From positions 1-46,030 of the forward strand of contig JAAAPE010000080.1 in the NCBI GenBank assembly GCA_009908385.1: a stretch of 46,030 nucleotides of DNA. The letters are read 5' to 3'. The notes beneath the pieces were generated by a model. That model was not told the origin of the DNA. It worked only from the letters and a program-made list of their open reading frames with translations, and ran no database searches. Below are positions 11,760 through 42,948 of the stretch, in pieces; the first letter of the stretch is position 1; each line of letters begins with the position of its first letter. The translations under genes and the position numbers were made by a program. Origin of the DNA: Gammaproteobacteria bacterium. Lineage in GTDB: Bacteria; Pseudomonadota; Gammaproteobacteria; Xanthomonadales; Wenzhouxiangellaceae.

Positions 11760-11850
11760 AAATTCGAAATTCGAAATCCGAAATTCGAAATGCAGCCCCG
11801 AAGGCTGGCGGACGACTGTTTCGGATTTGTTGCTTCGAATTTCGTGCTTC
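11760..11850 (+). repeat. TTCGAAAT-word imperfect palindrome between gspE and gspF
   Basis: The left arm (11760-11791) is made of overlapping CGAAATTCGAA words (perfect at 11765-11775 and 11779-11789). The right arm (11818-11850) carries the reverse complement TTCGAATTTCG at 11834-11844. The middle contains a small CAGCC/GGCTG hairpin (11793-11807). It starts about 12 bases after the gspE stop and ends just before the gspF ribosome binding site. A related, longer element is at 40721-40863. Confidence 0.85.
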
Positions 11851-11868
11851 ACCCGGAGGGTGTCCAAG

Positions 11869-13080
11869 TTGCCTTTGTTTGAGTACAAGGCCGTTACCCC
11901 GGCCGGCGAGACGATGACCGGCGAGATGGACGCGCCGAGCAAGGATCTCGTCATCGCCCACCTGCAGGAGTCGGGCAATATCCCGGTTTCGGCCAAGGAG
12001 GTCGGCTCCGGTTTTCGCCTGTCGGCCCTGTTGCGGGGGCGGCAGGGTCTCAAGCAGGCCGAGATCGGTGATCTTACCCAGCAGCTTGCCACGCTGCTCG
12101 GCGCGGGCCTGCCGCTCGATCGTTCGCTAGGCATCCTGGCCGAACTGGCGGAAAACGACCGGGTCCAGGGGACGGTCGAGAAAATCCGCAACCGGGTCCG
12201 CGAAGGCGGCTCGCTGTCCGAGGCGCTGGAGGAGCGCCACGGCGTTTTCTCGCGTTTCTACATCAACATGGTCCGCGCCGGCGAGATCGGGGGCTCCCTC
12301 GACAACACGCTCGCGCGCATGGCCGAGTACCTGGAACGCTCGAAGGAGCTCAAGGATTCCGTCATCTCGGCGATGATCTACCCGGCGCTGCTGGTGCTGC
12401 TGGCGGTCGCATCGCTGATCCTCCTGATGGGCTACGTGATTCCGCAGTTCGCGCCGATGTTCGAGGAGTTCGGCGGTGAGCTGCCGCTGCTGACCAAGAT
12501 CGTGATGGTCGTCGGTGCCGCGCTTCAGCATTACTGGTGGGCGATGCTCGGCGCGGTGCTGGTGGTCGTGCTCTGGTTCCGTGGGCAGATGCGGCGCCCG
12601 GCCTCGCGTCGGCGCTGGGACCGGCGATTCCTGCACATGAAGGGCGTCGGCGACGTCATCGCCAAGATGGAAACGGCGCGTCTGGCGCGCACCTCGGGCA
12701 CCCTGCTGATCAACGGTGTGCCGCTTTTGTCGGCACTTTCCATCGCCAAGAATGTCATGACCAATACGGTTCTCGGCGACGACGTCGCGGAGGCGGCCAA
12801 GCAGGTCAAGACCGGCACGCCCATGACGCGGGCCCTGGCGACCAACGAGAACTTTCCGCGCCTGGCGCTGCAGATGATCAATGTCGGCGAGGAAACCGGC
12901 AAGCTTGACGAGATGCTTCTGAAGGTCGCCGATACCTATGATCGCGAGGTGCGCACGACCATCGACCGGCTCATGGCACTGCTCGTGCCGCTGCTGACCC
13001 TGGGGCTGGCGCTCGTCATCGGCGTGATCGTGATGTCGGTGCTCATGGCCATTCTCAGCATCAACGAACTGGTGGCCTGA
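11869..13080 (+). CDS. gspF: Type II secretion inner-membrane platform protein GspF
   Basis: This 403-residue polytopic protein has two T2SF domains and three strong membrane segments, at about residues 165-190, 222-240 and 375-398. It anchors the assembly platform and contacts GspE and GspL. The start is taken as TTG at 11869, giving MPLFEYKAVTPAG, the normal beginning of GspF. A GGAGG at 11855-11859 is well spaced for this start, whereas the GTG at 11860 is too close to it. A repeat element separates it from gspE, which is unusual in an otherwise tight cluster. Confidence 0.93.
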   Translation: MPLFEYKAVTPAGETMTGEMDAPSKDLVIAHLQESGNIPVSAKEVGSGFRLSALLRGRQGLKQAEIGDLTQQLATLLGAGLPLDRSLGILAELAENDRVQGTVEKIRNRVREGGSLSEALEERHGVFSRFYINMVRAGEIGGSLDNTLARMAEYLERSKELKDSVISAMIYPALLVLLAVASLILLMGYVIPQFAPMFEEFGGELPLLTKIVMVVGAALQHYWWAMLGAVLVVVLWFRGQMRRPASRRRWDRRFLHMKGVGDVIAKMETARLARTSGTLLINGVPLLSALSIAKNVMTNTVLGDDVAEAAKQVKTGTPMTRALATNENFPRLALQMINVGEETGKLDEMLLKVADTYDREVRTTIDRLMALLVPLLTLGLALVIGVIVMSVLMAILSINELVA

Positions 13081-13135
13081 AGGCCGCGGTTTCCACCCAC
13101 TGTCATTCGCCCGTACCGGGCCGGAGGAAAACTGG

Positions 13136-13546
13136 ATGTACAAGGCTTCGAACAATGCCGGCTTCTCGCTGATCGAGCTGCTGGTCGTGTTGATCATTCT
13201 GGGCCTCATCGCGGGCCTGGTCGTTCCCAACATCATGCAGCGTGGCGAGGACGCCAAGGTGCGCGCGGCGGAAGCCGAGGTGCAGCGTCTGTCGATGGCC
13301 GTCGACGAGTTCTACCTCGACAACGGCCGGCCGCCCAACGAGTTACGCCAGCTGATCGAAAAGCCCGGCAATGCCAGCAACTGGAACGGACCCTACGTCA
13401 ACGACTCTAACCTGAATGATCCCTGGGACAACGCCTACCAGTACCGCTATCCGGGTGAACACCGGTCCTTCGATATCTGGTCCCACGGCGCTGACGGTTC
13501 GCCGGGGGGCGAAGGGCCCAACTCCGATATCAGGAACTGGGATTGA
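13136..13546 (+). CDS. gspG: Major pseudopilin GspG
   Basis: The 136-residue prepilin has a short basic leader ending at G9, cleaved and N-methylated at F10 by the prepilin peptidase. The cleavage motif is GFSLIELLVVLIILG with the conserved glutamate at +5 (E14). The C-terminal segment GADGSPGGEGPNSDIRNW corresponds to the calcium-binding loop of GspG. It forms the shaft of the pseudopilus. A GGAGGAAAA ribosome binding site precedes the ATG. Confidence 0.95.
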   Translation: MYKASNNAGFSLIELLVVLIILGLIAGLVVPNIMQRGEDAKVRAAEAEVQRLSMAVDEFYLDNGRPPNELRQLIEKPGNASNWNGPYVNDSNLNDPWDNAYQYRYPGEHRSFDIWSHGADGSPGGEGPNSDIRNWD

Positions 13547-13550
13547 GTTG

Positions 13551-13700
13551 GATACGGGTTCCGGGTGCCAGGTTTCAGGATCGAGCTGATGAGTTCGGGA
13601 GGACCGCGTTCGCTGCGACCGGCTCCGCGCTCGAGACACCGATCGACCGCCCGGTATTCCGAAGGAGGTCCCGGATCTTCGCTTCGCTCGTCCGGGACGC
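13551..13700 (+). repeat. Repeat-like insertion covering the gspG-gspH junction
   Basis: It begins 4 bases after the gspG stop with a run of near-repeated words (GGGTTCCGGGTGCCAGGTTTCAGG-like, 13557-13580). It ends with a perfect 8-base inverted repeat, GTCCCGGA at 13668-13675 and TCCGGGAC at 13691-13698, around a 15-base loop made of TCGCT-like words. A full Shine-Dalgarno match AAGGAGGT (13662-13669) lies at the foot of the hairpin but has no start codon in frame behind it. The words resemble those in the other non-coding elements of this window. Confidence 0.6.
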
Positions 13701-14152
13701 CGGCGCGACATAATCGCGCGGGCGGGTTCAGCCTGATCGAGCTGATGGTGGTCATGGTGCTCGTCGCCATGCTCTTCGCGGTGATCGGCGTGTCGCTGAC
13801 GCGCTCCATCGGCGGTGCGGAGATCCGCAACGCCGCGCGCGAGATCACCGCCGGCCTCCGCCATACCCGGGGTCAGGCGATCGTCAAGCGCCAGGCGCAG
13901 GTCTTCCAGGTCGACGCCGACGCGCGCACCTGGCAGGCCGCCGGACGCGAAGCGGTCAAGCTGCCCGACGATCTGGAGATCACGCTCGAGACCGCGCGCT
14001 CGGAGATGACCGGCGAGAACGCCGGCGGCATCCGGTTCTTTCCCGACGGCGCTTCGACCGGAGGCAGCATCAAGCTGCTCGCACAGGAGCGCGAATGGGT
14101 GATCAACGTCGGCTGGCTGACCGGTGAGGTCAGCATCGACGAGGAGTTTTGA
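13589..14152 (+). CDS. gspH: Minor pseudopilin GspH with an abnormally long leader
   Basis: The prepilin motif GFSLIELMVVMVLVAMLF and the downstream GspH-like domain (GAEIRNAAREITAGLRHTRGQAIVKRQ) identify this minor pseudopilin of the tip complex. The oddity is the start. The nearest in-frame ATG is at 13589, which gives a 46-residue, Arg/Ser/Pro-rich leader before the cleavage glycine, where fewer than about 25 is usual. The leader is translated from the repeat-like insertion at 13551-13700. No closer ATG, GTG or TTG exists in frame. An ATG-free start or a decayed start region are alternatives. The stop overlaps the gspI start. Confidence 0.8.
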   Translation: MSSGGPRSLRPAPRSRHRSTARYSEGGPGSSLRSSGTPARHNRAGGFSLIELMVVMVLVAMLFAVIGVSLTRSIGGAEIRNAAREITAGLRHTRGQAIVKRQAQVFQVDADARTWQAAGREAVKLPDDLEITLETARSEMTGENAGGIRFFPDGASTGGSIKLLAQEREWVINVGWLTGEVSIDEEF

Positions 14153-14637
14153 TGAGTCTGGCAGGACACGACGATCCGGATCGCGCACGGTTCCCGGTGG
14201 CGGCCTGCCGGCGGAGCCGGCAGGCCGGCTTCACCCTGATCGAGGTGATGGCGGCCTTCATGGTCTTCTCCCTGCTGTTCGGTGTCGTGCTGCAGATTCT
14301 CTCGACTTCGGTCGGCAATACGCGCATGTCGGGCGACTACACGCAGGCGGCGCTGTGGGCCCAGTCCAGGCTCGATACCGTCGGGCTGGAAAGCATGATC
14401 GAGCCGGGCGTGACCCGGGGCGATTTCGACGACCGTTTTTCCTGGACGATGGAGGTCGAGGAAACCGCCGTGGCCGACGGCCGCGGGCTCGACGCGCAGG
14501 AAGGACTGCCCATCGTCCTCTACCATATCCGGCTGACGGTGGAATGGGGCGAAGGCAACCGTGGCCGGCAGGCGGTCTTCGAAACCATGCGCTCGGTCGA
14601 TACTCACTGGCAAGAACGGCAGCGGGGTCGGCAATGA
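14152..14637 (+). CDS. gspI: Minor pseudopilin GspI
   Basis: The 161-residue minor pseudopilin has the cleavage motif QAGFTLIEVMAAFMVFSLL with F27 as the mature first residue and E at +5. The ATG at 14152 overlaps the gspH stop (TGATG). The 26-residue leader is long for a pseudopilin, and its last ten codons (AACRRSRQAG) are encoded by a strong palindrome at 14201-14227. GspI nucleates the tip complex with GspJ and GspK. Its stop overlaps the gspJ start. Confidence 0.9.
   Translation: MSLAGHDDPDRARFPVAACRRSRQAGFTLIEVMAAFMVFSLLFGVVLQILSTSVGNTRMSGDYTQAALWAQSRLDTVGLESMIEPGVTRGDFDDRFSWTMEVEETAVADGRGLDAQEGLPIVLYHIRLTVEWGEGNRGRQAVFETMRSVDTHWQERQRGRQ
14201..14227 (+). repeat. 12-bp perfect palindrome inside the gspI leader
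   Basis: CGGCCTGCCGGC is followed by the 3-base loop GGA and then by its exact reverse complement GCCGGCAGGCCG. It codes for the basic end of the GspI leader, directly before the prepilin cleavage site. Confidence 0.9.
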
Positions 14638-15338
14638 TCATGCAGCGGCATCGCGGCTTCACCCTCATCGAGGTGCTGCTGGCCGTCTCCCTGGTGGCGA
14701 TCATCATGGCGATGGCCTACGGTGGCTTCCGCGCCAGCGTGCGCGCGACGCGCTCGGGCGAGGCGGTGATCGAACAGACCAACCGGCTGCGGGTGGTCCA
14801 GCAGTTCGTGCGTCGTCAGCTCATGCAGACCCGCTCGCTGGTCATCGAGCAGATGGAGGATGGCCAGGCGATCCGGTTCGAGGGCGACCGCGACTTCGTG
14901 CGCTTCGTCGCGCCCCTGCCGGGCTACCTCAGCTACGGTGGCCCCTACGTGCAGCAGCTCAGCCTGGAGCGCGGCGAGGACGGGCAGGAGCTGGTCTTCT
15001 ACTACGCGATGCTCAACGGCTACGAGGACGGCGCCCTGGAGGCGACCACCGACGGGGTCGTGCTCATGGAAGGCCTCGAGGACGCCGAGTTCATCTTCCT
15101 CGACGTCGACGAGCGCGGCGAGGAGACCTTCTGGAGCGACTTCTGGGAATACCCCGAGCGCCTGCCGCTCGCGGTCGGCTTGCTCGCCGACCTGAACAGC
15201 GAACGTGGCCTGGCCTGGCCGGACCTGATCGCCCCGGTGATGATCGACTCCAGCCATACGCAGCGCGACCGCACGATCCGGCGCGCCAGCGACATGATCC
15301 TGCAGCGCAGTCGCGGAAGCGACCGGGGGCGTCGTTGA
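14634..15338 (+). CDS. gspJ: Minor pseudopilin GspJ
   Basis: The 234-residue protein has a short leader (MIMQRHRG) and the cleavage motif GFTLIEVLLAVSLVAIIMA, cut after G8. The large soluble domain carries the GspJ segment QFVRRQLMQ and the strand-rich part from RFVAPLPGY to LVFYYAML. It forms the pseudopilus tip with GspI and GspK. The ATG overlaps the gspI stop (ATGA); an internal ATG at 14640 is a near-equal alternative. Confidence 0.93.
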   Translation: MIMQRHRGFTLIEVLLAVSLVAIIMAMAYGGFRASVRATRSGEAVIEQTNRLRVVQQFVRRQLMQTRSLVIEQMEDGQAIRFEGDRDFVRFVAPLPGYLSYGGPYVQQLSLERGEDGQELVFYYAMLNGYEDGALEATTDGVVLMEGLEDAEFIFLDVDERGEETFWSDFWEYPERLPLAVGLLADLNSERGLAWPDLIAPVMIDSSHTQRDRTIRRASDMILQRSRGSDRGRR

Positions 15339-16237
15339 GAACGCGATGGCCCCCGCGCCAGTCCGGCATCGCACTGATCGTGGTGCTGTGGATACTCGTG
15401 CTGCTGACCATCGTCGTCGGCGTGTACGCCGTGCTGGCGCGCACCGAGAGCATGCAGTCGCGTTTCCTCTTCGACACCACCATTGCCCGCTACGCTGCCG
15501 AAGCCGGCATCCACCGGGCTGCCTACGAGATGAGCAATCGCGACTGGGAAACGCGCTGGGTGCCCGACGGGCGTCCCTACGCCTTCAATTTCGGGGGTGC
15601 CGAGGTGGAAGTGCGCATCACCGACGAATCGGGCAAGATCGACATCAACCAGGCCGGCGCGGAACTTCTTTCCAACCTGTTCATCTCACGGGGTATGGAA
15701 GAGGCGGAGGCCTGGCATCTGGCCGACGCCATCGAGGACTGGCGCGACGCCGACGACCTGCCCCGGCTCTACGGCGCCGAGGAAGACGACTATTTCGCCG
15801 CAGGCTATCCTTACGGACCGGCCAACATGCCCTTCAGCTCGGTCGCGGAGCTGCAGCAGGTCATCGGAATGAGCTGGCAGCTGTTCCGCGACATCGAGCC
15901 GATGCTGACGGTCGATTCGACAAGCGGCGGTCGCGTCAATCCGGCGTTCGCCTCGGCCGACGTCCTGGCCACCATGCCCGAAATGGATCGCGAGTCGGCG
16001 CAACGCTTCGTCGAGGAACGGCAGACCTTCCACCCGGTCGACCAGCAGGCCCTGGCCTTGCCCGACGGGACCATGGTCAGCTTGCAAGGGGGTGGCCGGA
16101 CCTTTAGCATTCGCTCGCGGGCGACGCTGGACAGCGGTACCTGGAGTGAAGTGCAAGCCACGCTCGAATTGGGCGGGGACCATCGCGGTCGTCCGTTTCG
16201 GGTGCTGCGCTGGCGTGACAATGTCGAGGATCGATGA
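15335..16237 (+). CDS. gspK: Minor pseudopilin GspK
   Basis: The 300-residue protein has the leader MRTRWPPRQSG followed by IALIVVLWILVLLTIVVGVY. As usual for GspK, the conserved +5 glutamate is absent. The large C-terminal domain has the family segment ITDESGKIDINQA and the helical insert around LADAIEDWRDADDLPRLYGAEDD-like residues. It caps the pseudopilus tip. The start is TTG at 15335, overlapping the gspJ TGA (TTGA); the next start, a GTG at 15380, would remove the leader. Confidence 0.92.
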   Translation: MRTRWPPRQSGIALIVVLWILVLLTIVVGVYAVLARTESMQSRFLFDTTIARYAAEAGIHRAAYEMSNRDWETRWVPDGRPYAFNFGGAEVEVRITDESGKIDINQAGAELLSNLFISRGMEEAEAWHLADAIEDWRDADDLPRLYGAEEDDYFAAGYPYGPANMPFSSVAELQQVIGMSWQLFRDIEPMLTVDSTSGGRVNPAFASADVLATMPEMDRESAQRFVEERQTFHPVDQQALALPDGTMVSLQGGGRTFSIRSRATLDSGTWSEVQATLELGGDHRGRPFRVLRWRDNVEDR

Positions 16238-17412
16238 ATCAGAGTGCCATCAACGAATACTGGGGCAGCGTCGTTGCCCGCTACCGCGCCGGCCCGCTTC
16301 CGGGGTTCCTGAAATGGTGGCGCGGAGAACTGGCCGGCCTGCTGCCGTCGGGTCTGCGCCAGCGCATGATCCCGCCGCGGCCGGTGCTGTGGCTGGTGCC
16401 GGAGTCCGAAGGCGGCCGTCTGACCGTCTGGGCCGGCGGCGATTCGCCGACGCAGCGCGACAGCTTCGGCGCCGGAGAGGATGCCGGCCTGGTTCGCGAT
16501 CGCTGGCTCGAGCTGGTCGGTGATTTCGACGACGGGCTGCCCGAGATTCGCCTGTGCCTGCCCCCCGAAGACGTCCTGCGGTGCCCCGTCGAGCTGCCGC
16601 TGGCGGTGGAATCCAATCTCGACCAGGCGCTGAGCTATCAGCTCGACCAGCTCACTCCCTTCAGTGCCGACCAGGTCCTGTTCGATTACGACATCATCGA
16701 GCGCGACGCCGATCACGGCCGGCTGCGCCTCGATCTGCGGCTGGCCCTGCGCTCGCGTGTGGATGCGCTGACCGAGCGGCTCGACGCCATCGGCATCAGG
16801 CCGCACGCCATCGATTGCCTCGCCGACGACGGCGAGCATCCGGCCTGTGCCGGCTTCAATCTCCTGCCCGAGGATGATCGGCCCCGCTATGTCTACCGGC
16901 GCGCGCGCATCAACTGGGTGCTCGCCAGCGGGCTGGTGCTGGTGCTGGCGCTGGTCATGGTCGAGTCTCTCTGGCTGCGCCAGCAGACGGTCGACCAGCT
17001 CGAAACCGAGGTCGAGCAGCTGCGCAGCGAGGCCGACAGCGTGCTGGCGCTGCAGCGCGAGCTCGAAGACGCCCTGGCGGCGGCCAACTTCCTGGCCGAG
17101 CGCCGCCGGCGCCAGCCGGTCGCGGTGCAGGTGCTCGACGAGCTCACCCGGATACTTCCGGACGATATCTGGCTGCAGCAGATGCAGATGCGCGGCCAGG
17201 AGCTGCAGCTGCAGGGTCTGGCCGACGCGTCGCAGCGCCTCATCGGGCTGATCAACGAGTCGCCGCTGCTGGCCGACGCGGAGTTCCGCGGATCGATCAG
17301 TATCGACCCGGGCAGCGGGCGCGAACGCTTCAACGCCCAGGCCCGCATCGAAACGGCCCGCATCGAGACCGAAGGAGGCGAGCGTGCAGCTGCTGCCGGA
17401 TCTGGAGAATAA
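16234..17412 (+). CDS. gspL: Type II secretion protein GspL
   Basis: The 392-residue protein is bitopic. The cytoplasmic actin-like domain (about 1-225) recruits GspE. A single membrane helix lies at about 228-248 (WVLASGLVLVLALVMVESLW). A periplasmic part follows, with a coiled coil (about 250-300) and a ferredoxin-like domain. The ATG at 16234 overlaps the gspK stop. It overlaps gspM by 29 bases, so the pair is made together, fitting the GspL-GspM heterodimer. Confidence 0.9.
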   Translation: MNQSAINEYWGSVVARYRAGPLPGFLKWWRGELAGLLPSGLRQRMIPPRPVLWLVPESEGGRLTVWAGGDSPTQRDSFGAGEDAGLVRDRWLELVGDFDDGLPEIRLCLPPEDVLRCPVELPLAVESNLDQALSYQLDQLTPFSADQVLFDYDIIERDADHGRLRLDLRLALRSRVDALTERLDAIGIRPHAIDCLADDGEHPACAGFNLLPEDDRPRYVYRRARINWVLASGLVLVLALVMVESLWLRQQTVDQLETEVEQLRSEADSVLALQRELEDALAAANFLAERRRRQPVAVQVLDELTRILPDDIWLQQMQMRGQELQLQGLADASQRLIGLINESPLLADAEFRGSISIDPGSGRERFNAQARIETARIETEGGERAAAAGSGE

Positions 17413-17995
17413 TCGGCCGCTGGCCATCGGCCTGCTGGCGATCGCGCTGGTGCTGGTCTACCTCGTGGGTTTCCACTGGTTCGTCGTGCGTCACGTCGAA
17501 CTGTCCGATCAGGTTGCGTCCCTGGAAGAGCGAGCGGCGCGCTTCAAGGCGGCGGTTGCGCGTGGGCCGGCGCTCGAATCCCGGCTCGAGGGGCTCGAGA
17601 GCGAGCGGCTCGACAGCGCCCTTTTCCTGCAGGAGACGAACTTCAATGTCGCCGCGGCCGGCCTGATGCGCCGACTTCGGGATATCATTCAGCGCGAGGC
17701 GGTCGATGCTGAGCTGTGCAACATCGTCTCGACCACCAACCGTCAAGACTCCGAGCCTGAACGATTCGAGCAGGTCACGGTCAATGTGCGCATGAACTGC
17801 CCGCTGCCGGACATGGTTCGCATCCTCTACCAGCTGGAGAACAACGTGCCGCTGATCTTCGTCGACAACCTGATCGTCAATCAGCGCATTTCCGCCGATC
17901 GTGCCGGGCAGCGCGGGCGCAGCAACTACGGACAGCTCGACGTGCGTTTCGATATGTACGGATTCATGCCCGGGCAGGTACAGGACGACGCATGA
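17384..17995 (+). CDS. gspM: Type II secretion protein GspM (PilO-like)
   Basis: The 203-residue protein has a short cytoplasmic N-terminus, one membrane helix (about 12-34), a coiled coil (HVELSDQVASLEERAARFKAA) and a periplasmic ferredoxin-like domain of the PilO/GspMb kind. The start is a GTG at 17384 inside gspL, with a purine-rich GGAGGCGAG just before it. It stabilises GspL in the assembly platform. Its stop overlaps the ATG of the next gene. Confidence 0.87.
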   Translation: MQLLPDLENNRPLAIGLLAIALVLVYLVGFHWFVVRHVELSDQVASLEERAARFKAAVARGPALESRLEGLESERLDSALFLQETNFNVAAAGLMRRLRDIIQREAVDAELCNIVSTTNRQDSEPERFEQVTVNVRMNCPLPDMVRILYQLENNVPLIFVDNLIVNQRISADRAGQRGRSNYGQLDVRFDMYGFMPGQVQDDA

Positions 17996-27459: not shown

Positions 27460-28298
27460 CCGCCGTCGTGGTCCCCGTGTTCAACGCGCCCGAGCAGGCC
27501 CGCCGTTGCCTGGCTGCGCTCGACTCGACTGTGGAGGCCAACCGGCCCGTCATCGTCATCGACGATGCTTCCGACGACCCTGCCATCGAGGGAGTTTTCG
27601 ACGACCTGCCGCGCCGCTGGACGACGGTCCGGAATCGCAGCAACCTGGGGTTCGTCGCCAGTGCCAACCTGGGCATGACCCTCGCCGGCGGCGAGGACGT
27701 GATCCTGCTCAATGCCGACACCTGCGTCAGTGAGGGCTGGCTCGACGCGATCGAGCGATGCCGCGACAGCGACGCGAGCGTCGCTTCGATCACGCCGCTG
27801 ACGAACAACGGCGAGATTGCCTCCATTCCCGACTTCTGCCGGGCCAATCCCTGGCCCGACGACGTCGAGACCTGGGCCCGCGCCTGCCGAAGCGCCGGAC
27901 CGCCGATGTATCCGGACGTGCCCACCGCGGTGGGCTTCTGCATGTTCCTGCGCCGCGCCTGCCTCGACGAGATCGGATTGTTCGACGAGGCCGCCTTCGG
28001 TCGCGGCTACGGCGAGGAAAACGACTGGTGCATGCGCGCCACCCACGCCGGCTGGCGCCACGTGCTCTGCGACGATGCCTTCGTCGCCCACGAGGGCGGC
28101 GCCAGCTTCGGTCCGCTGGGAATCGAGCCCGGCGGCGAGGCCATGGCCACCCTCCTGGCCCGCTACCCGGACTACATGGACCGCGTTCGGGCCTTCATCG
28201 ACGCCGATCCGATGGCGGAGCGCCGGCGGAGGATCGTCGCGCGTTACCGGGCGGTTGGTGGGGCCGGAAGTGAAGGGGCGGAGGCCAGTGGTCGGTAG
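27456..28298 (+). CDS. Family 2 glycosyltransferase
   Basis: The 280-residue GT-A protein starts AVVVPVFNAPEQARRCLAAL. It has the nucleotide-binding VIVIDDASDD stretch, the DXD-like region LLNADTCVSEGW and the acceptor-side GEENDWCMRATHAGW. It would add a sugar to the lipid-linked glycan on the cytoplasmic face; donor and linkage cannot be told. The ATG at 27456 overlaps the wzt stop. The last residues, EASGR and the stop, are read from the beginning of the TCAGTGG repeat tract, so the natural C-terminus has probably been replaced or extended by the repeat. Confidence 0.88.
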   Translation: MTAVVVPVFNAPEQARRCLAALDSTVEANRPVIVIDDASDDPAIEGVFDDLPRRWTTVRNRSNLGFVASANLGMTLAGGEDVILLNADTCVSEGWLDAIERCRDSDASVASITPLTNNGEIASIPDFCRANPWPDDVETWARACRSAGPPMYPDVPTAVGFCMFLRRACLDEIGLFDEAAFGRGYGEENDWCMRATHAGWRHVLCDDAFVAHEGGASFGPLGIEPGGEAMATLLARYPDYMDRVRAFIDADPMAERRRRIVARYRAVGGAGSEGAEASGR

Positions 28299-28428
28299 TC
28301 CGTAGTCAGTGGTCCGTGATCAGTGGTCCGTGGTCAGTGGTCAGTGGTCACTGGTCAGTGGTCAGTGGTCAGTGGTCAGTGGTCAGTGGTCAGTAGTCAG
28401 TGGTCAGTGGTCAGTGGTCAGTAGTCAG
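28285..28428 (+). repeat. TCAGTGG heptamer tract
   Basis: About twenty tandem copies of a 7-base word (mostly TCAGTGG, with TCAGTAG, TCCGTGG and TCACTGG variants) run from the last codons of the glycosyltransferase at 27456-28298. The copies are close to perfect in the centre (28336-28390). The tract is followed at once by a GACGCAC tract. The same pair of words occurs at 42031-42103. Confidence 0.95.
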
Positions 28429-28436
28429 GCGCGCCG

Positions 28437-28516
28437 ACCACTGGCGCACGGACGCACGGACCACAGACGCACCGACGCACAGACGCACCGACGCACAGAC
28501 GCACGGACACACCGAC
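28437..28516 (+). repeat. GACGCACN octamer tract
   Basis: About eight copies of GACGCAC with A, C or G as the eighth base lie here. The opening ACCACTGG (28437-28444) is complementary to the CAGTGG words upstream, so the two tracts can form the arms of one imperfect palindrome. Confidence 0.9.
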
Positions 28517-28543
28517 ATGCCCCTTCCCCGCGGCGCCTCCGGT

Positions 28544-34011: not shown

Positions 34012-35682
<1,671 letters not shown>

Positions 35683-35749
35683 GAGTGCTTGCTGCTGGTT
35701 GAACGCCAGTCGATGGATGTGGGGGCGAGTGTAGCGGATTACCAATTGA

Positions 35750-35779
35750 GGTTTCAGGTTTCAGGGTTCAGGTTTCAGG
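35750..35779 (+). repeat. GGTTTCAG-word repeat, first copy of a 30-bp direct repeat
   Basis: Four overlapping GGTTTCAG/GGTTCAG words. All 30 bases are identical to 42919-42948. The sub-word GGTTTCAGGGTTCAG (35757-35771) recurs inverted at 35963-35977, so the 190 bases between are framed by an inverted repeat. Confidence 0.95.
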
Positions 35780-35962
35780 AGCGCCGTCCGAGGCCGAGGG
35801 ATCGTTGCCGACAACCCTTGCGCCTTGCTCGCTTAATGCTTGGGCATGAGCGGGATAGAGGCCCCAGGCCGCGGCCGGGTCTCGGCCGATCACCGCCCGG
35901 CGAAGCCGGCCCGCATGGCGGGCGTCCCGCGCCGCCGGAACCCCGAACCCCATGGCTTCCTA
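35780..35962. other. Unassigned GC-rich segment between ettA and the OleD-like gene
   Basis: The 341-base gap 35683-36023 contains the repeat at 35750 and its inverted partner at 35963. Between them is a GC-rich stretch whose minus strand stays open for 61 codons (35953 to 35768) and has protein-like composition (GRLRRAVIGRDPAAAWGLYP). It could be a gene remnant carried with the repeats; I do not recognise it and do not call it a gene. No clear promoter for either flanking gene is seen here. Confidence 0.4.
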
Positions 35963-35977
35963 CTGAACCCTGAAACC
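35963..35977 (-). repeat. Inverted copy of the GGTTTCAG word
   Basis: CTGAACCCTGAAACC is the exact reverse complement of 35757-35771. It is followed by a decayed tail resembling further words. It lies 46 bases before the start of the OleD-like gene. Confidence 0.9.
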
Positions 35978-36023
35978 GATTTCCAGCTAACCTGTAACGC
36001 GTCAATCGAAGGAAGGCAAATCC

Positions 36024-37010
36024 ATGCGAGTACTGGTAACCGGAGGCGGCGGATTTCTTGGTCAGGCCATCGTCCGCCAGCTGGTCGAGCGGGGCGATTC
36101 GGTGTCGACCATCAACCGCTCCGACTACCCCGAGCTGGGCGAGCTCGGCGTGGTCTGCCATCGTGGCGACATCGCTAATCGCGCCGCGGTCATGGCCGCC
36201 GTCGACGGCGTAGAGGCGGTCATCCACGTGGCCGCCAAGGCGGGCCCGGGGCTGTACGCGCCGGATTTCGTGGCCGCGAACGTTATCGGTACCGGCAACG
36301 TCATCGAGGCTTGCCGGGCCCACGGCGTAAGCTATCTGGTCCATACGTCATCGCCCAGCGTGGTGCATGCCGGCGGGGATATCGACGGGGGCGACGAATC
36401 GCTGCCTTACCCGGATCATTTCCCGGCGCCGTATCCGGCCACCAAGGCGGAGGCCGAGCGGCTGGCGCTCGCCGCGAGCTCGGACGCCATGAAGGTCTGT
36501 GCCCTTCGCCCGCACCTGATCTGGGGACCGGGCGACAACCAGCTGCTGCCCCGGCTGATCGAGAAGAACCGGGCCGGTCGGCTAAAGCTTCCGGCGCCGG
36601 AGAAGCTGATCGACACCGTCTATATCGACAACGCCGCCGAGGCGCACCTGCTCGCGCTCGACAACCTGGCCGGACCGGCGACGGCGGCCGGCAAGGCGTA
36701 TTTCATTTCCAACGGCGAACCCATGCCTGTCGGGGAGATGCTGTCGAAGATGCTCGAGGCCGGCGGAGAGACGCCGCGACTGGGCAGCGTGTCGCCGCGC
36801 GTGGCGATGGTCGCGGCCACCCTCGTCGAGTGGTTCTGGCGCGCGACGCGGCGCCGGAGCGACCCGCCGCTTTCGCGTTTCGTGGTCGAGCACCTGGCCA
36901 CGGCGCACTGGTTCGACCTCTCCCAGGCCCGGCGTGATCTCGGGTACGAGCCGGCGATCAGCATCGCCGACGGGCTCAGGCGGATGGCGAACTCACAGGC
37001 TCCATCATAG
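36024..37010 (+). CDS. OleD-like NAD(P)-dependent 3-beta-hydroxysteroid dehydrogenase family reductase
   Basis: The 328-residue extended short-chain dehydrogenase has nucleotide loop GGGGFLG (7-13), the HTSSPSVVH strand, catalytic Y137 and K141 in PYPATKAEAE, and the segment LRPHLIWGPGDNQLLPRLIEK. The overall pattern is very like OleD of Xanthomonas and Stenotrophomonas, which reduces 2-alkyl-3-ketoalkanoates in long-chain olefin synthesis. OleA, OleB and OleC are not present in this window, so the pathway cannot be confirmed. AAGGAAGG precedes the ATG at 36024. Its end overlaps the convergent kinase gene by 6 bases. Confidence 0.82.
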   Translation: MRVLVTGGGGFLGQAIVRQLVERGDSVSTINRSDYPELGELGVVCHRGDIANRAAVMAAVDGVEAVIHVAAKAGPGLYAPDFVAANVIGTGNVIEACRAHGVSYLVHTSSPSVVHAGGDIDGGDESLPYPDHFPAPYPATKAEAERLALAASSDAMKVCALRPHLIWGPGDNQLLPRLIEKNRAGRLKLPAPEKLIDTVYIDNAAEAHLLALDNLAGPATAAGKAYFISNGEPMPVGEMLSKMLEAGGETPRLGSVSPRVAMVAATLVEWFWRATRRRSDPPLSRFVVEHLATAHWFDLSQARRDLGYEPAISIADGLRRMANSQAPS

Positions 37011-37658
37011 CCCGCGGCGCCGGGCCCAGTGGTTGACGCGCTCGATGCGCGAGCGCCGCACGAGGTGGCGGTCGAGTTCGTCGACACGATCGTAGCTGCC
37101 GTACTTGAGCTTGACCCAGCCATTGAGGTCGATCTGGCGAAGATAGCCGAACAGCCAGTGATTGAGCGGCCGCCACCCCGGTCTGCGCACCACCGCCGCA
37201 CCGAGATCGATGATCGCCGGGCGTCCGTCGCTCGCTACCAGCACGTTCTTCCGGCTCTTGAGGTCGCCGTGTGCCACGCCGCGGCCGTGCATGGCGACGA
37301 TGATCTGCCTGAGTTCATCGAAGAAACGCGGCCGGTCGGGCGGTATCGCGTGCCGGAGCAGGTCGCCTTCGAGGTATTCCAACGCCAGATGGCAGCCGCC
37401 GAACAGCCCCAGGCAGCGCGGAAAGCCGGCCAGGCCCGCGATGCGTCGATAGGCCTGGAACTCGCGTCGCAGGGACAGGCGCCTCGCCTCGCGCGCGATG
37501 CCGCGACCCCGCGGGGACTTGACGGCGAGATCGAGCCCCGGCGCCTGGACGCGCACGATCGTGCCCTGATTGCTGTCCGCCACCAGGGGCCAGTCCGCGG
37601 GATTGAAATCCGCGAACAGGGATTCGAGCCTTTCGGTCCGGGATTCTGCCTGCGCCAT
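37005..37658 (-). CDS. Small protein-kinase-fold enzyme (RIO/LPS kinase-like)
   Basis: The 217-residue protein has a kinase lysine in DLAVKSPRG (K47), a catalytic loop HGDLKSRKNVL (130-140, D132 and N138) and the metal-binding DLG at 151-153 (IIDLGAA). The short lobes and AHGDLKSRKN motif resemble lipopolysaccharide core kinases (InaA/WaaP/KdkA) and RIO-like kinases rather than eukaryotic-type serine kinases. A sugar substrate is plausible near the polysaccharide genes but not shown. The ATG at 37658 is chosen; an upstream extension to 37751 is open but unlike a kinase. Confidence 0.78.
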   Translation of the reverse strand: MAQAESRTERLESLFADFNPADWPLVADSNQGTIVRVQAPGLDLAVKSPRGRGIAREARRLSLRREFQAYRRIAGLAGFPRCLGLFGGCHLALEYLEGDLLRHAIPPDRPRFFDELRQIIVAMHGRGVAHGDLKSRKNVLVASDGRPAIIDLGAAVVRRPGWRPLNHWLFGYLRQIDLNGWVKLKYGSYDRVDELDRHLVRRSRIERVNHWARRRGL

Positions 37659-37783
37659 GCCCGGATCATATCGGATCGGCGTCGGTGCTCCGTACGAAAA
37701 ATCTGTGCCCGCGGACTCGAAAACCGGTCGCTGGGCCCCCACAATACGCACTTCGAGAGGATTCAGACGGGGATTTTTGAACG

Positions 37784-38110
37784 ATGCCTATCTATGAATA
37801 TCGCTGCCGGGCCTGCGGGCACGAAATGGAGAAGCTGCGGAAGCTGTCCGATCCGCCGCTCGTGGACTGTCCGGAATGCGGCGAGCCGGCGCTCGACAAG
37901 CTGATCTCCGCCGCCGGTTTCCGGCTCAAGGGCGGCGGCTGGTACGAAACCGACTTCAAGAAGGACAACAAGCGCAACCTGGCCGGCGAAGGCAAGTCCG
38001 AGAAGAAGTCCGACGGTGGAGGCAGCTCGAAGGCCGACAGCAAGCCGTCCAGCGCTTCTGACAAGAAGGCCAGCGACACCAGCAGCACCTCGTCCGGGCA
38101 GGCGGCCTGA
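37784..38110 (+). CDS. FmdB-family zinc ribbon protein
   Basis: The 108-residue protein starts MPIYEYRCRACGHEMEKL, the signature of the FmdB/CxxC putative regulatory family. Cysteines C8, C11, C29 and C32 form the zinc ribbon. The second half is a Lys/Ser/Gly-rich disordered tail, as in other family members. It lies 3 bases before aspS, its usual neighbour in many proteobacteria. Function is not established; nucleic acid or ribosome contact is the usual guess. Confidence 0.9.
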   Translation: MPIYEYRCRACGHEMEKLRKLSDPPLVDCPECGEPALDKLISAAGFRLKGGGWYETDFKKDNKRNLAGEGKSEKKSDGGGSSKADSKPSSASDKKASDTSSTSSGQAA

Positions 38111-38113
38111 TCG

Positions 38114-39886
38114 ATGCGTTCTCACCTGTGCGGAGAAGTCGACGAGACGCTCGACGGCCAGACGGTCACGGTCTGCGGCTGGGTCAATCGCGCCCGTGAC
38201 CTGGGCGGCCTGATCTTCGTCGGCCTGCGCGACCACGCCGGCGTGCTGCAGGTCGTGGTCGAACCCGACAACCAACCCGCCTTCGCCGAGGCCGAAAAGC
38301 TCAGGAACGAGTTCTGCGTTCGACTCAGCGGGACGGTGCGCATGCGTCCCGAAAGCCAGTGGAATCCCGACATGCCCACGGGCAAGGTCGAGATGCTGGC
38401 CGACTCGGTCGAGATCCTGAACGCTGCCGCGCCGCTGCCGCTTCTGATGAACGACGAGGACGGCGAGGAAGTGCGCCTGAAGTATCGTTTCCTCGACCTG
38501 CGCCGGCCGCGCCTGCAGCGCAACCTGCGGCTGCGGTCCAGGCTGACCGGCGCGATCAGGAAGTTCCTCGATGCGCGCGAGTTCGTCGACGCCGAGACGC
38601 CGATCCTGACCCGAGCCACGCCGGAGGGCGCCCGCGACTACCTGGTGCCCAGCCGCGTGCATCCGGGCAGCTTCTTCGCGCTGCCGCAGTCGCCCCAGAT
38701 CTTCAAGCAGATCCTGATGATGGCGGGCATGGACCGCTACTACCAGGTCGCGCGATGCTTCCGCGACGAGGACCTCCGGGCCGATCGTCAGCCCGAGTTC
38801 ACCCAGCTCGACATGGAAATGGCCTTCGTCGAGGAATCCGACGTGCAGGACACGGCGGAAAACCTGATCCGGCAGGTGTTCCGGGACGTGCTGGACGTGG
38901 ATCTGCCCGATCCCTTCCCGCGCATGACCTATGCCGAGGCGATGCGTCGCTATGGCTCCGACAAGCCGGATCTTCGCATCGACCTGGAGCTGGTCACGAT
39001 CTGCGAGCACGTGCGCCACGTCGAATTCAAGGTCTTTTCCGGCCCGGCCAGCGATCCGGCCGCGCGCGTGGCCGCGTTGCGCGTGCCCGGCGGCGCCGAG
39101 CTGACGCGCAAGCAGATCGACGGCTACACCGATTTCGTCGCCCGTTACGGCGCGAAGGGCCTGGCCTGGATGAAGGTCAACGACGCTGCCGCCGGACTCG
39201 AAGGCGTCCAGTCGCCGGTGGCGAAGTTCCTCGACGAGCGGGCGGTAACCGGCATCCTCGAGGCGACCGGCGCGAGAGACGGCGACATCCTGTTCTTCGG
39301 CGCCGGCGAAAAGCCGGTGGTCAATGCCTTCCTCGGCGCGCTGCGCCTGCAGGTAGCCCGGGACCTCGATCTGGTGGCCGAGGGCTGGAAGCCGCTGTGG
39401 GTGGTCGACTTTCCGATGTTCGAGTACGACGAGGAAGACGGCCGCCACTACGCGCTGCACCATCCCTTCACGGCCCCCGCGGTCAACGACGGCGAGGCGC
39501 TCAAGGCCGATCCGGTCAACGCGCTGTCGCGCGCCTACGACATGGTGCTCAACGGCTCGGAAATCGGCGGCGGCTCGATTCGTATTCACGACCCGAAGCT
39601 GCAGCAGGCCGCATTCGACGTGCTCGGCATCGACGAAACCGAGGCGAAGGCTCGTTTCGGTTTCCTGCTCGAAGCACTGAAGTACGGCTGCCCCCCGCAC
39701 GGCGGCATCGCCTTCGGCATCGACCGCATCGCCGCCCTGATGGCCGGGGAGGACTCCATCCGCGAAGTCATCGCCTTCCCCAAGACGGCCAATGCGTCGT
39801 GTTTGATGACCGGGGCACCCGCAGCCGTGGAGGCCGATCAGCTCAAGGAGTTGAAATTGAAGAGTGAGGCCAGCGGCGAGGAATGA
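38114..39886 (+). CDS. aspS: Aspartyl-tRNA synthetase
   Basis: The 590-residue class II synthetase has exactly the length of E. coli AspRS. An N-terminal OB-fold anticodon domain (1 to about 110, [21 protein letters not shown]) is followed by the catalytic core. Motif 2 is [18 protein letters not shown] and motif 3 [13 protein letters not shown]. The bacterial GAD insert lies between them (about 285-420). It charges tRNA-Asp. The start is 3 bases after the zinc ribbon gene. Its stop runs directly into a palindromic element. Confidence 0.97.
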
Positions 39887-40078
39887 ACAAGAACCAAGCA
39901 CCAATTTGCAAACAAATCTCAATGACCGAATGATCAATGTTCAAAACGAGGGGGCGGGCACCCGTTTCGGTCATTGCAAGTTGATCATCGGTTCTTGTTT
40001 GAAAGTTGGAAATTGGTACTTGGTCATTCACAATCCGAGATTGGTGCTTGGAATCCGGACATTCAGGACGACGGCCAC
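39887..40078 (+). repeat. Long imperfect palindrome after aspS
   Basis: It begins at the aspS stop. Perfectly complementary word pairs are CAAGAACC (39888) with GGTTCTTG (39990), CCAAGCACCAA (39894) with TTGGTGCTTGG (40041), CAATGACCGAA (39920) with TTCGGTCATTG (39966), and TGATCAA (39931) with TTGATCA (39981). The order is roughly nested around a GC-rich centre (39948-39963). The element has much lower GC than its surroundings. The word CAAGCACCAA recurs in the next element at 40740. Confidence 0.9.
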
Positions 40079-40084
40079 CAACTC

Positions 40085-40720
40085 ATGACCGCAGTCACCG
40101 ATCCCCGAACCGTCGTCCTGGTCCACGGCCTCTGGTGGGGCCCCTGGAGCATGGGGCTGCTGGCCCGCCGGCTCGAACGGCGGGGCTTTAGGACGCAGGC
40201 CTTCGGCTATCCCACCATGAGACAGTCGCTGCGGGCCAATGCCGAGGCCCTGCGTGAGTTCGTCGCCGGCCTGTCGCTCGAGCGGGTCGACCTGGTCGGC
40301 CATTCCCTCGGCGGCCTGGTCATCCTGCGCATGCTCGACGAATTCTCCGACCTGCCGCCCGGCCGCATCGTCCTGCTCGGCTCGCCGGTGCAGGGATCCG
40401 CGGTGGGCCGTCGCGTGGCGGACCGGCCCCTGTTCAAGCCCCTGGTGGGGCAGGCCAGGACAGCCCTGGAACGCGGCTTCTCCCACGCCCCGGCCGGGCG
40501 CGAGACGGGTGTGATTGCAGGCAGCCGTTCGGTCGGCGTCGGGCGCCTGTTCGGGCCGTTGGATACGCCCAACGACGGCACCGTGACGCTGGCGGAATGC
40601 CGGCTCGAAGGCGCCGCCGAGTGCGTGCTGCCGGTGACGCATACGGGATTGGTGACGGCGCCGGGGGTGGCGCGAGCGACTTCGGGCTTTCTGCGTTCGG
40701 GAAGTTTCGGGGATTGCTGA
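40085..40720 (+). CDS. Alpha/beta hydrolase
   Basis: The 211-residue alpha/beta-hydrolase has the oxyanion segment VVLVHGLWWGPW, nucleophile elbow GHSLGG with S74, a likely acid in LDTPNDGTVTL and the histidine of LPVTHTGLV. The NDGTV...H ending resembles PGAP1/lipase-like esterases. The ATG at 40085 begins the conserved part and has no strong ribosome binding site. The gene lies between two palindromic elements in an insertion that parts aspS from yebC. The substrate is unknown. Confidence 0.85.
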   Translation: MTAVTDPRTVVLVHGLWWGPWSMGLLARRLERRGFRTQAFGYPTMRQSLRANAEALREFVAGLSLERVDLVGHSLGGLVILRMLDEFSDLPPGRIVLLGSPVQGSAVGRRVADRPLFKPLVGQARTALERGFSHAPAGRETGVIAGSRSVGVGRLFGPLDTPNDGTVTLAECRLEGAAECVLPVTHTGLVTAPGVARATSGFLRSGSFGDC

Positions 40721-40863
40721 AACCTAAAATTCGAAATATCAAGCACCAAATCCGAAACAAATCCGAAATACGAAATTCGAAACCCGGGCCTGGAGCTGGC
40801 AGCCGTTTCGGGTTTCGAATTTCGAGCTTGTTTCGGGTTTGATGCTTCGTGCTTCGTATTTCG
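40721..40863 (+). repeat. Long TTCGAAAC-word palindrome after the hydrolase gene
   Basis: The left arm (40721-40783) and right arm (40804-40863) are made of CGAAAT, TTCGAAAC and CAAGCACCAA words. They are imperfect reverse complements over about 55 bases; GAAATTCGAAAC (40772-40783) and GTTTCGAATTTC (40812-40823) match exactly. The centre is GC-rich (40784-40803). It starts at the hydrolase stop and ends 18 bases before the end of the convergent gene. Confidence 0.92.
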
Positions 40864-40880
40864 CGCGCTTACCGCGCGAG

Positions 40881-41915
40881 TCACTCCCACGGATTGCAGT
40901 CGTACCCGGCCGTGCGGATCAGGCGTTCGGCCTCGAAGGAACCTTCACCCAGTTCGCCTTCGGCGAAGTCGTAGCTGACCAGCAGTCGGTTGCAGTCGAG
41001 CGCCTCGATCGTCATCGTGCCGATCGAGAAGATATCGACGTCTTCTTCGCTGAAGCTGCCGGGCCCGGAGGTGATGAACTCGCCGCCGTAGAGCTCGAGC
41101 ATGTCGAGCGTGACGATGTCGAAGCCGGGTTCGAGACCCGCCCTGGAACCGATGACCCAGAACGGCGCCCCTTCGAAGTAGGTGAACAAGATCGCCGTCA
41201 CGTTGTTGGTATCGTCGAACGCCTCGCCGATCTGCAGCACGAGGCCGCTGAACGGGATGCCGTCGACGGTGTACTGGCCGGACATGCGGCCGTGCAGCAC
41301 CTGGTAGGGGTCCTGGGTGGGGTCGAGCTCGGGCACGTAGGGCTCGATGATGAATCGCTCGCCGTTGGGCGCGGCGATCGGTGAATAGTCGCCCCAGAAA
41401 AGCTCGAGCGTGAACACGCCGTTGTAATCGTCGGGGCCGAACTCCGTTGCGCCGTCGAGCGAGAACGGGTCGACGCCCAGCATGTAGGTCACCGGCGTTT
41501 CGTTGATGATGTTGGCCGAGGCGCCGACATTGCCGACCGCCGGATGGCGGATCAGCTGAGCCACGTGCATGGGCAGCGTCGTCTCGCCGGCTTCGGCGTA
41601 GACCTTGGGGACGAGGACGGGGTCTCCCGAGGTCTTCTGCAGCCGGACCATGACCACCGAGTAGCCTTCGTCGTGGCAGCCGGTGCGCCAGATCGTGACC
41701 TGCACCTGCGCGTCCTTGCTGGTCGAGCCGATCGACGGCACCGAAATGTTCTCGTTGAACAGGGTGTTGGCGGGCGAGGCCGGCGCGCTCGGCAGGTCGA
41801 CCGCCACGCAGCCGGGCGGGAAGGGCGACTTGAGATCGGTGAGCACGTTGATCTCGCCGGTCGCGGCGGCGCGGCCGACGATGAGGAAGGTCAGTGCGAG
41901 CAGGAAGTAGCGCAT
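40881..41915 (-). CDS. Exported protein of unknown function
   Basis: The 344-residue protein has a short signal peptide (MRYFLLALTFLIVGRAAA, cleavage after residue 18). The mature part is acidic and strand-rich, with four cysteines (PPGCVAV, RTGCHDEG, EALDCNRLL, GYDCNPWE) that could form two disulfides. I recognise no enzyme motif. The C-terminal portion (from GRMSGQYTVDGIPFSGLVLQIG) looks like a small beta-sheet domain often seen in exported proteins of this group of bacteria. The ATG at 41915 starts the signal peptide directly. It is transcribed against its neighbours. Confidence 0.78.
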   Translation of the reverse strand: MRYFLLALTFLIVGRAAATGEINVLTDLKSPFPPGCVAVDLPSAPASPANTLFNENISVPSIGSTSKDAQVQVTIWRTGCHDEGYSVVMVRLQKTSGDPVLVPKVYAEAGETTLPMHVAQLIRHPAVGNVGASANIINETPVTYMLGVDPFSLDGATEFGPDDYNGVFTLELFWGDYSPIAAPNGERFIIEPYVPELDPTQDPYQVLHGRMSGQYTVDGIPFSGLVLQIGEAFDDTNNVTAILFTYFEGAPFWVIGSRAGLEPGFDIVTLDMLELYGGEFITSGPGSFSEEDVDIFSIGTMTIEALDCNRLLVSYDFAEGELGEGSFEAERLIRTAGYDCNPWE

Positions 41916-42030
41916 GGTTCGGTCGCTCGTTGAGGCGTGGCTCCATTCTAGCGCCGCTTTCTGACCGCTGGCTGAACGACGGCGCGATGTTCGTCGCAGG
42001 TCGGGGCCGCGGTCCCGGCGGGCGGGGGCT

Positions 42031-42103
42031 GTGGTCAGTGCGTCAGTACGTCAGTAGTCAGTACCTCTGACGCACGGACGCACGGACGCACGGACGCACA
42101 GAA
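42031..42103 (+). repeat. TCAGT/GACGCAC two-word palindromic element
   Basis: A short series of TCAGT words (42035-42062) is followed by four GACGCAC words (42069-42100). GTGCGTCAG (42038-42046) and CTGACGCAC (42067-42075) are exact reverse complements. The word order is the same as at 28285-28516. The 115 bases between this element and the gene start at 41915 show no other feature. Confidence 0.9.
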
Positions 42104-42139
42104 CCCCGCCGGCCGGGCGAATCCGGCGCATCCTTCGGT

Positions 42140-42145
42140 TAAAAT
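42140..42145 (+). promoter_or_regulatory. Likely -10 element for yebC and the ruv genes
   Basis: TAAAAT within CGGTTAAAATGGC lies 35 bases before the yebC ATG. It would serve yebC and probably ruvCAB-ybgC-tolQ. No -35 is recognised. A GGAGG ribosome binding site follows at 42166-42170. Confidence 0.5.
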
Positions 42146-42180
42146 GGCCGACTTGTCATCATCATGGAGGCACGCGACCC

Positions 42181-42918
42181 ATGGCCGGTCACAGCAAATG
42201 GGCCAATATCCAGCACCGCAAGAAGGCGCAGGACGCCAAGCGGGGCAAGATCTTCACCCGGTTGATCCGCGAGATTTCGGTGGCCGCGCGCGAGGGCGGC
42301 GGTGATCCCGACAGCAACCCGCGGCTGCGGCTGGCGATCGACAAGGCCAACGGCGCCAACGTGCCCAAGGACAATATCGAGCGTGCGATCAAGAAGGCCA
42401 CCGGCGAGCTCGAGGGCGCTTCCTACGAGGAATTGCGCTACGAGGGCTATGCCCCGGGGGGCGTGGCGGTGATGGTCGATTGCCTGACCGACAACCGCAA
42501 CCGCACGGTCTCGGAGGTGCGCCACGCCTTCAACAAGCACGGCGGGAACCTGGGTACCGACGGGTCGGTGGCCTTCCAGTTCGAGAAGAAGGGCGTGATC
42601 ACCTTCGCGCCGGGTACGGGCGAGGACAAGGTGATGGAAGCGGCCCTTGAAGCCGGCGCCGAGGACATCGTCACCGACGAGGACGGCTCGATCGAAGTGC
42701 TCACCGAGCCGGAAGAGTTCGAGGCCGTTCGTGACGCCTTCCGCGCCGCCGGCCTGGCCTTCGAGGAGGCCGAGGTCACGCAGCGCGCGAACAATCTCAT
42801 CGAGGTGGACGTCGAGACCGGAAAGAAGGTGCTGAACTTCCTCGACGTGCTCGAGGATCTCGACGACACGCAGAATGTCTGGTCGAACGCGGACATTCCG
42901 TCGGAAGCGTATGAGTAA
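42181..42918 (+). CDS. yebC: YebC/TACO1-family translation and transcription regulator
   Basis: The 245-residue protein starts [20 protein letters not shown], the invariant YebC opening, and continues with the three-domain pattern ([35 protein letters not shown]). Bacterial YebC proteins have been described as DNA-binding regulators and, more recently, as helpers of translation through proline stretches. GGAGG precedes the ATG. It stands before ruvC as in many gammaproteobacteria, but here a repeat element separates it from ruvC. Confidence 0.95.
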
Positions 42919-42948
42919 GGTTTCAGGTTTCAGGGTTCAGGTTTCAGG
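42919..42948 (+). repeat. Second copy of the 30-bp GGTTTCAG-word repeat
   Basis: This is identical over 30 bases to 35750-35779. It starts on the base after the yebC stop codon and ends 27 bases before ruvC. Confidence 0.95.

What the first reader, a model, noticed from the sequence alone, without database searches (positions are those of the whole stretch)
11760..42948. A class of word-built palindromic elements spread through the window
Eight elements (11760, 13551, 28285, 35750, 39887, 40721, 42031, 42919) are composed of very short words repeated with small changes: TTCGAAAT, GGTTTCAG, TCAGTGG, GACGCACG and CAAGCACCAA. At least five can fold as imperfect palindromes with a GC-rich centre. 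Six begin within about 15 bases after a stop codon, two of them on the stop itself. Different sequences sharing one architecture and one insertion preference suggest a common origin process, such as a non-coding mobile element or a templated synthesis mechanism. I know of no named family that covers them all.
Basis: partly seen in the sequence, partly recalled or inferred. Interest (0 to 1): 0.75.

Follow-up and report, generated by a model that had tools for sequence, protein, structure and literature searches.

The report
Dispersing hairpins built from 7-letter words
Between the genes of this Wenzhouxiangella bacterium sit hairpin-like DNA elements made of repeated 7- or 8-letter words; related species gain, lose and swap them at the same places, but what copies them is unknown.

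Summary
The window is from a Wenzhouxiangella species. Seven of the eight elements are word arrays or word-built palindromes; 13551 is at best a remnant. Six of eight fold better than shuffles.

The five words reduce to three families: I GGKTTCA; II GTCNGTR(C) (TCAGTGG plus GACGCACG); III a long [CG]AANNN stem (TTCGAAAT plus CAAGCACCAA).

A word-blind search finds period-7/8/14 arrays at 15.1 per 100 kb in the own sample, against 0.2 in 67 loci of other Pseudomonadota. Relatives show empty sites and other words in the same gap; one gap's element resembles the elements of a different gap in two other species rather than its own orthologs. Paired arrays face inward (32 FR, 0 RF). So the elements disperse.

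No stop-codon preference remains once space for a ribosome-binding site is allowed. RVT_1 and Y1 transposase are absent from the genome richest in family I, so RT-templated synthesis and REP/RAYT are unlikely.

Closest known: Xanthomonas GGGANTN heptamer arrays, partly inverted pairs. This is a new variant of that kind; mover and function are unknown.

The parts
11757..11851 (+). Family III element (CGAAATN words), left arm 11760-11791, right arm about 11818-11851, between gspE and gspF
   Evidence: z -3.1; nhmmer E 5.9e-16, a training sequence; genes overlap in G016 and lie 2 to about 12 bp apart in G035, G037, G014
13551..13725 (+). Remnant at best: one GGTTTCAG copy plus a separate GGTCCCGGATC..GTCCGGGAC hairpin; not a word array
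   Evidence: z -0.2; arrays in the same gap of G016 and G017
28285..28517 (+). Family II element: GTCNGTR arm 28286-28428, GACGCACN arm about 28436-28517; the gene's stop 28296-28298 lies inside the element
   Evidence: z -6.0
35748..35977 (+). Family I long element: GGKTTCA arm 35748-35779, core with GGAGCG start and GGCGAAGCCGGCC hairpin, TGAAMCC arm 35964-35977; in a divergent gap
   Evidence: (z -4.1); centre 79% identical to the ortholog in L040 over 177 columns
39888..40060 (+). Family III element, CAANNNC dialect, directly after the aspS stop
   Evidence: (z -3.6); genes overlap with no insert in G037 and G014
40719..40879 (+). Family III element, CGAANNN dialect, at the stop of the next gene
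   Evidence: (z -7.0); projected gap -4, 13 and 12 bp in G036, G014, G020
42031..42102 (+). Family II element: GTCAGTRC arm and GACGCACG arm, divergent gap upstream of yebC
   Evidence: z -6.1; G016 has a family I element in the same gap
42918..42948 (+). Family I single arm (GGKTTCA x4) between yebC and ruvC; does not fold (z -1.2)
   Evidence: genes overlap with no insert in G035 and G036; word arms in G016, G037, G020

Best explanation
These are short non-coding hairpin elements whose two arms are inverted arrays of a 7- or 8-nt word, and they disperse from site to site, much like non-autonomous transposable elements whose ends are word arrays. Shown: they are spread over the genome, absent from the same gap in some relatives, replaced by other word families in others, present in very different numbers in different species, and paired arms face inward; in one gap the element resembles elements that two other species carry in a different, neighbouring gap. 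Inferred: an unidentified DNA-acting enzyme (transposase or recombinase) recognises the word arms and copies or exchanges the elements; arm length then changes by slippage; survival only in gaps explains why they sit beside stop codons. No cell function needs to be assumed.
For: Copies on at least 32 contigs; 19 family I sites in the 384-kb own sample. Matches of the exact 18-mer in the family: 0 to 279, 25 of 43 genomes positive. Nine window gaps hold a 7-11 nt word element in at least one of eight genomes (window plus up to seven relatives; I left out gap 2948 with a 15-mer coding repeat and gap 21410 with a period-9 run in G036 only). Unrelated words in 5 (11749, 28299, 35746, 39887, 41916), related dialects in 3 (13547, 40721, 42919), one genome only in 1 (38111). 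In 5 of 9 (11749, 38111, 39887, 40721, 42919) some genome has the genes overlapping or at most 3 bp apart. Element does not follow the gap: G035's element after the hydrolase-like gene scores 177 and 170 with the aspS-gap elements of G017 and the window, 108 with its own genome's aspS-gap element, and 64 and 73 with its orthologs. Shared interior in family I: 31 of 49 strand-wise centres join one BLAST cluster at E 1e-3, some links through inner word arrays; of 27 distinct elements 14 carry GGRGCG and 13 TTTTCC at the inner edges, against 0.05 and 0.03 per shuffled centre; motifs chosen after seeing the centres. Polarity: FR 32, RF 0, same direction 10.
Against: No enzyme or autonomous copy was found. 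No target-site duplication can be judged, because the nearest genomes compared are only 86-88% identical in aspS DNA. Only 6 of 27 family I elements carry both inner-edge motifs in one orientation; 6 carry neither. Ectopic gene conversion between existing hairpins would explain the swapped element too. Loops of many elements are not shared between copies.
Confidence: 0.6

Rival explanations
1. Local origin: slippage makes the 7/8-mer arrays at each site and template switching copies one arm into the other, with no movement between sites.
For: Array length varies; period 7 was linked to polymerase slippage in earlier work, as told in the discussion of PMC4692102; block runs of one word variant in G012 look like local expansion.
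Against: The same word on at least 32 contigs, partly shared family I interiors, an element resembling another gap's elements. Variable letters of the two arms do not match: 33 of 78 when paired from the centre (shuffled mean 0.51) and 40 of 78 from the base (shuffled 0.52), so the arms do not visibly template each other.
Confidence: 0.15
2. Ectopic gene conversion: old hairpins stay in place and are overwritten by one another, which keeps the words alike and swaps them between gaps.
For: The swapped element of G035 ends at the same right flank as its orthologs; the same gaps are occupied in several species.
Against: Gaps with overlapping genes in several relatives need gain or loss, not only overwriting; match counts range from 0 to 279.
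Confidence: 0.15
3. Selected RNA hairpins (terminators, attenuators, mRNA stabilisers or protein-binding sites) kept for their function.
For: 6 of 8 fold with z <= -3; fixed word frame with one free letter in families I and II.
Against: Free letters are not complementary between arms; found in co-directional, convergent and divergent gaps alike; gain and loss between close species; no Rfam match up to E 0.5 in the window.
Confidence: 0.07
4. Templated synthesis by a reverse transcriptase or telomerase-like enzyme.
For: Word-like arrays with one free position in two families.
Against: RVT_1 found in 12 of 43 family genomes, not in G000 (85% complete), G015 or G016, the last 99% complete and richest in family I.
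Confidence: 0.03

Closest known systems
Xanthomonas GGGAATC/GGGANTN heptamer arrays (PMC4692102; abstract and sections 3, 10, 14, 16 read)
   Same: Heptamer arrays, 89-93% intergenic, on average 28 nt from the upstream gene, conserved letters at word positions 1-4 and 6, 70 and 75 inverted convergent pairs, function unknown; Xanthomonas belongs to the same order (recalled).
   Different: [quoted passage not shown] Here three main families and 24 canonical words in the own sample, octamers too, and frequent gain, loss and replacement.
TAACTGA direct repeats of Beggiatoaceae (PMC4679880; abstract and section list seen)
   Same: Intergenic heptamer arrays, 169 sets in one genome.
   Different: Mostly just upstream of start codons, one word, only one indirect repeat.
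REP elements with RAYT (PMC3733652; passages and listing abstract seen)
   Same: Dispersed intergenic palindromes, inverted dimers.
   Different: REPs are 20-40 bp with a GTAG or CGTC tag; here word arrays, and no Y1 transposase match in G000 or G016.
MITEs (general knowledge; PMC10969869 seen in a listing only)
   Same: Short, non-coding, inverted ends, empty sites.
   Different: No terminal repeat of fixed length, no target duplication seen, no partner transposase known.

Membership tests
Intergenic heptamer arrays with inverted pairs (Xanthomonas type) | Unit of 7 nt in tandem, over-represented in non-coding DNA | tested here: met
   64 of 93 arrays fall in the 8.5% called non-coding; 30 of them p7, 19 p8. 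One of the 64 (3110-3327) is probably coding
Intergenic heptamer arrays with inverted pairs (Xanthomonas type) | Convergent inverted pairs | tested here: met
   32 FR, 0 RF, 10 same-direction pairs in the G000 and G016 samples
Intergenic heptamer arrays with inverted pairs (Xanthomonas type) | Unit GGGANTN, able to form a quadruplex | tested here: not met
   Tandem GGGANTN (>=2): 0 in G000 and 1 in G016 samples. Four G3 tracts: 0 of 57 intergenic arrays in G000, but 6 of 47 in G016, so some family I arms there could form one
REP | RAYT (Y1) transposase in the genome | tested here: not met
   PF01797 not matched in G000 (85% complete) and G016 (99%); 19 of 43 family genomes have it
REP | GTAG or CGTC tag at the hairpin foot | not tested
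   Not scanned
MITE | Presence/absence at orthologous sites | tested here: met
   In 5 of 9 element gaps some genome has overlapping genes or a gap of at most 3 bp
MITE | Terminal inverted repeats | tested here: met
   Inverted word arms, but of variable length; single arms exist (42919)
MITE | Target-site duplication | tested here: inconclusive
   Junctions read; relatives too diverged (86-88% in aspS)
MITE | Partner transposase with matching ends | tested here: inconclusive
   Of possible movers only RVT_1 and Y1_Tnp were searched
RT- or telomerase-templated repeats | Reverse transcriptase gene | tested here: not met
   No RVT_1 match in G000, G015, G016

The most novel reading that the evidence does not exclude
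An unknown system reads short words with one or more unread positions (GACGCACN, CCTGAAN, [CG]AANNN) and uses them as phased recognition units to move or build hairpins; each lineage runs its own vocabulary, and vocabularies replace each other at the same gaps. L203, L250 and L271, contigs of unknown and differing origin, suggest that it is wider than this family.
Probability: 0.15. Interest if true: 0.85.

Novelty: new variant of a known kind. Interest (0 to 1): 0.6.

Why it matters
Heptamer repeats in bacterial gaps have been reported without a known cause or role (PMC4692102). Here one genus shows gain, loss and word replacement at the same gaps, with match counts from none to hundreds. That makes their origin testable with close strains and with the richest isolate, and it shows that gaps inside core gene runs (gspE-gspF, yebC-ruvC) are rebuilt repeatedly.

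Tried and rejected
Reverse transcriptase as writer: not matched where family I is richest. RAYT: not matched there either. Stop-codon targeting: not beyond geometry. Arms copying or pairing with each other at the free letters: no excess. A general rule of one free letter per word: a word-blind test over 88 arrays gave 0.106 of variant pairs in the same column (80 of 753) against 0.09-0.10 expected. So the rule is shown only for some words: family I, 36 of 44 arrays variable at that column and 0-8 at the others; GACGCACN 8 of 9; CCNGAAC 6 of 7; GACNACT 4 of 5; CGAAATN 2 of 3. That call picked arrays by frames already chosen and ignored the free column when filtering words, without that exemption, agrees for the main words. 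Families I and II rising together: weak, Spearman 0.36, p 0.019 over 43 genomes; 0.34, p 0.06 over 30 of the genus; I and III 0.14, p 0.36. A vocabulary shared by the phylum: CGCAAAGACGCAAAGACGC in 1 of 299 genomes, the own one. Known RNA: no Rfam match up to E 0.5. Plasmid carrier: the family I element gave 13 records with partial matches, none covering 80%; the aspS-gap element none; the low-complexity filter was on. Text search for words: 6 words, 0 papers; 6 words, 4 papers, none on bacterial repeats by title; topic searches.
Full report
Where it is. AspS of the window is 92% and 91% identical to Wenzhouxiangella sp. 15190 and W. sediminis.

What is there. All eight places were read. With a word-blind finder for local periods 4-15, the own sample (window plus 20 stretches, 384,134 bases; the stretches come from contigs that had family I hits, so density is biased upward) gave 93 arrays, 64 of them in the 8.5% called non-coding. 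Intergenic periods are 7 (30), 8 (19), 14 (4), 15 (4) and seven others; one of the 64, at 3110-3327, is probably coding. The 29 coding arrays have periods 6, 9, 12 and 15 plus five of period 7. One order-5 Markov copy gave 5 arrays, three others 21. Period 7/8/14 arrays per 100 kb, coding ones included: own sample 15.1; G016 12.8; synteny-chosen G037 26.7, G017 16.5, G035 6.7, G014 3.3, G036 0.0; ten further aspS loci of the family or unclassified gammaproteobacteria 10.3; and 0.2 in 67 aspS neighbourhoods of other Pseudomonadota. G015 had 5 intergenic arrays of all periods in 200 kb, G010 none in 62 kb, G004 three in 83 kb. So the density is a feature of some species only.

Three families. 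Family I is GGKTTCA: position 5 of TGAAACC departs from consensus in 26% of 264 words, the other six in 1-5%. Family II is GTCNGTR(C): in octamers the last letter of GACGCACN takes all four bases, and 7-mers and 8-mers alternate in some arms. Family III joins TTCGAAAT and CAAGCACCAA: nine elements align along one stem with AA at 7-nt steps; eight of nine share an AAACAA step and most a CGAAAC..GTTTCG cap, while loops do not align well. An HMM built from these nine finds them again, as it must, plus copies in L009 and L039/L169 and a weak one in L026. Other words occur: 24 canonical words in the own sample, 57 over all groups.

Shape. Six of eight window elements fold with z <= -3. Where neighbouring arrays of one family lie within 350 bp, they face inward in 32 pairs and outward in none; 10 pairs point the same way.

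Movement. Gaps between orthologous genes were compared with up to seven relatives (lengths there are projected from BLAST ends) and read base by base. Between gspE and gspF the window has a CGAAATN element and G017 about 300 bp with other words, while the genes overlap in G016 and lie 2 to about 12 bp apart in G035, G037 and G014; G036 has 51 bp without an array. Between yebC and ruvC the genes overlap in G035 and G036, and word arms sit in the window, G016, G037 and G020. Between aspS and the next gene, CAA words sit in the window, G017 and G035, GCAAAGAC words in G016, and the genes overlap in G037 and G014. In the following gap the window and G017 have the CGAA dialect, but G035 has a CAA element that scores 177 and 170 with the aspS-gap elements of G017 and the window, 108 with its own genome's aspS-gap element, and 64 and 73 with its orthologs. 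Family I interiors are partly shared among unlinked places. Numbers by species are very uneven, with overlapping matches in one array counted apart: family I 0-329 by a degenerate 23-mer, in 30 of 299 genomes of the order, 28 of them in the own family; the reversed control was silent except in G350 (18) and G492 (1). GACGCACN triple in 6 of 43 family genomes, G012 162 and G000 63, G016 none. CGAAATN triple in 5 of 43.

What it does not do. Beside-the-stop placement is what is left when a gap is small and the next gene needs a ribosome-binding site. Free letters of the arms do not match, so pairing does not hold those letters; the frame must be held by recent common descent, by exchange among copies, or by a reader of the word. 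I cannot tell these apart, and a word-blind test did not find one free letter per word as a general rule. Neither RVT_1 nor Y1_Tnp is needed, since G016 shows neither. No G-quadruplex is needed: four G3 tracts occur in 0 of 57 intergenic arrays of the own sample, though in 6 of 47 of G016.

Reading. Dispersal is shown; the mechanism is inferred. I commit to movement or exchange of hairpins by an unidentified DNA enzyme acting on the arms, at 0.6. Rivals are ranked in their own section.

Known relatives. The Xanthomonas arrays (PMC4692102, abstract and sections 3, 10, 14, 16) share unit length, place, fixed-plus-variable word positions and inverted pairs. They differ by word, quadruplex potential and positional stability. 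This is why I call the present case a new variant of a known kind.

Noticed in passing
window 3115-3320: Fifteen-base repeat AAGAAGGCTTCCAAG, 13.7 copies at 97% match; probably a coding repeat, with a longer one in the same gap of G036.
   Followed up: no
window 13547-13744 and the following gsp genes: In several relatives extra sequence with GGTCCCGGATC..GTCCGGGAC hairpins lies just before the prepilin-like FSLIEL / FTLIEV motif, near or inside the leader.
   Followed up: partly
L022 993-2163 and 13850-14997: Two blocks of about 1.1 kb with nested hairpins and no called gene; the first is edged on both sides, the second on its left, by octamer arrays of the TTTTTTCG type.
   Followed up: partly
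L203, L250, L271 (viral contigs): Dense period-7 word arrays, partly other words (CTGAGAA, GACGAAT), in contigs of 63, 35 and 68% GC; origin unknown, may be mislabelled bacterial DNA.
   Followed up: partly
plasmid hits H2-H4 and H6-H8, e.g. CP082470.1 1526-1559: The six listed Salmonella plasmids (of 11 Salmonella records matched), each about 4.7 kb, hold a 33-34 bp match to the GGTTTCAG arm at 94%.
   Followed up: no
G012, e.g. C126:5143-5277: Long GACGCACN arrays in which the free letter changes in blocks (T run, then C run), as if expanded locally.
   Followed up: no
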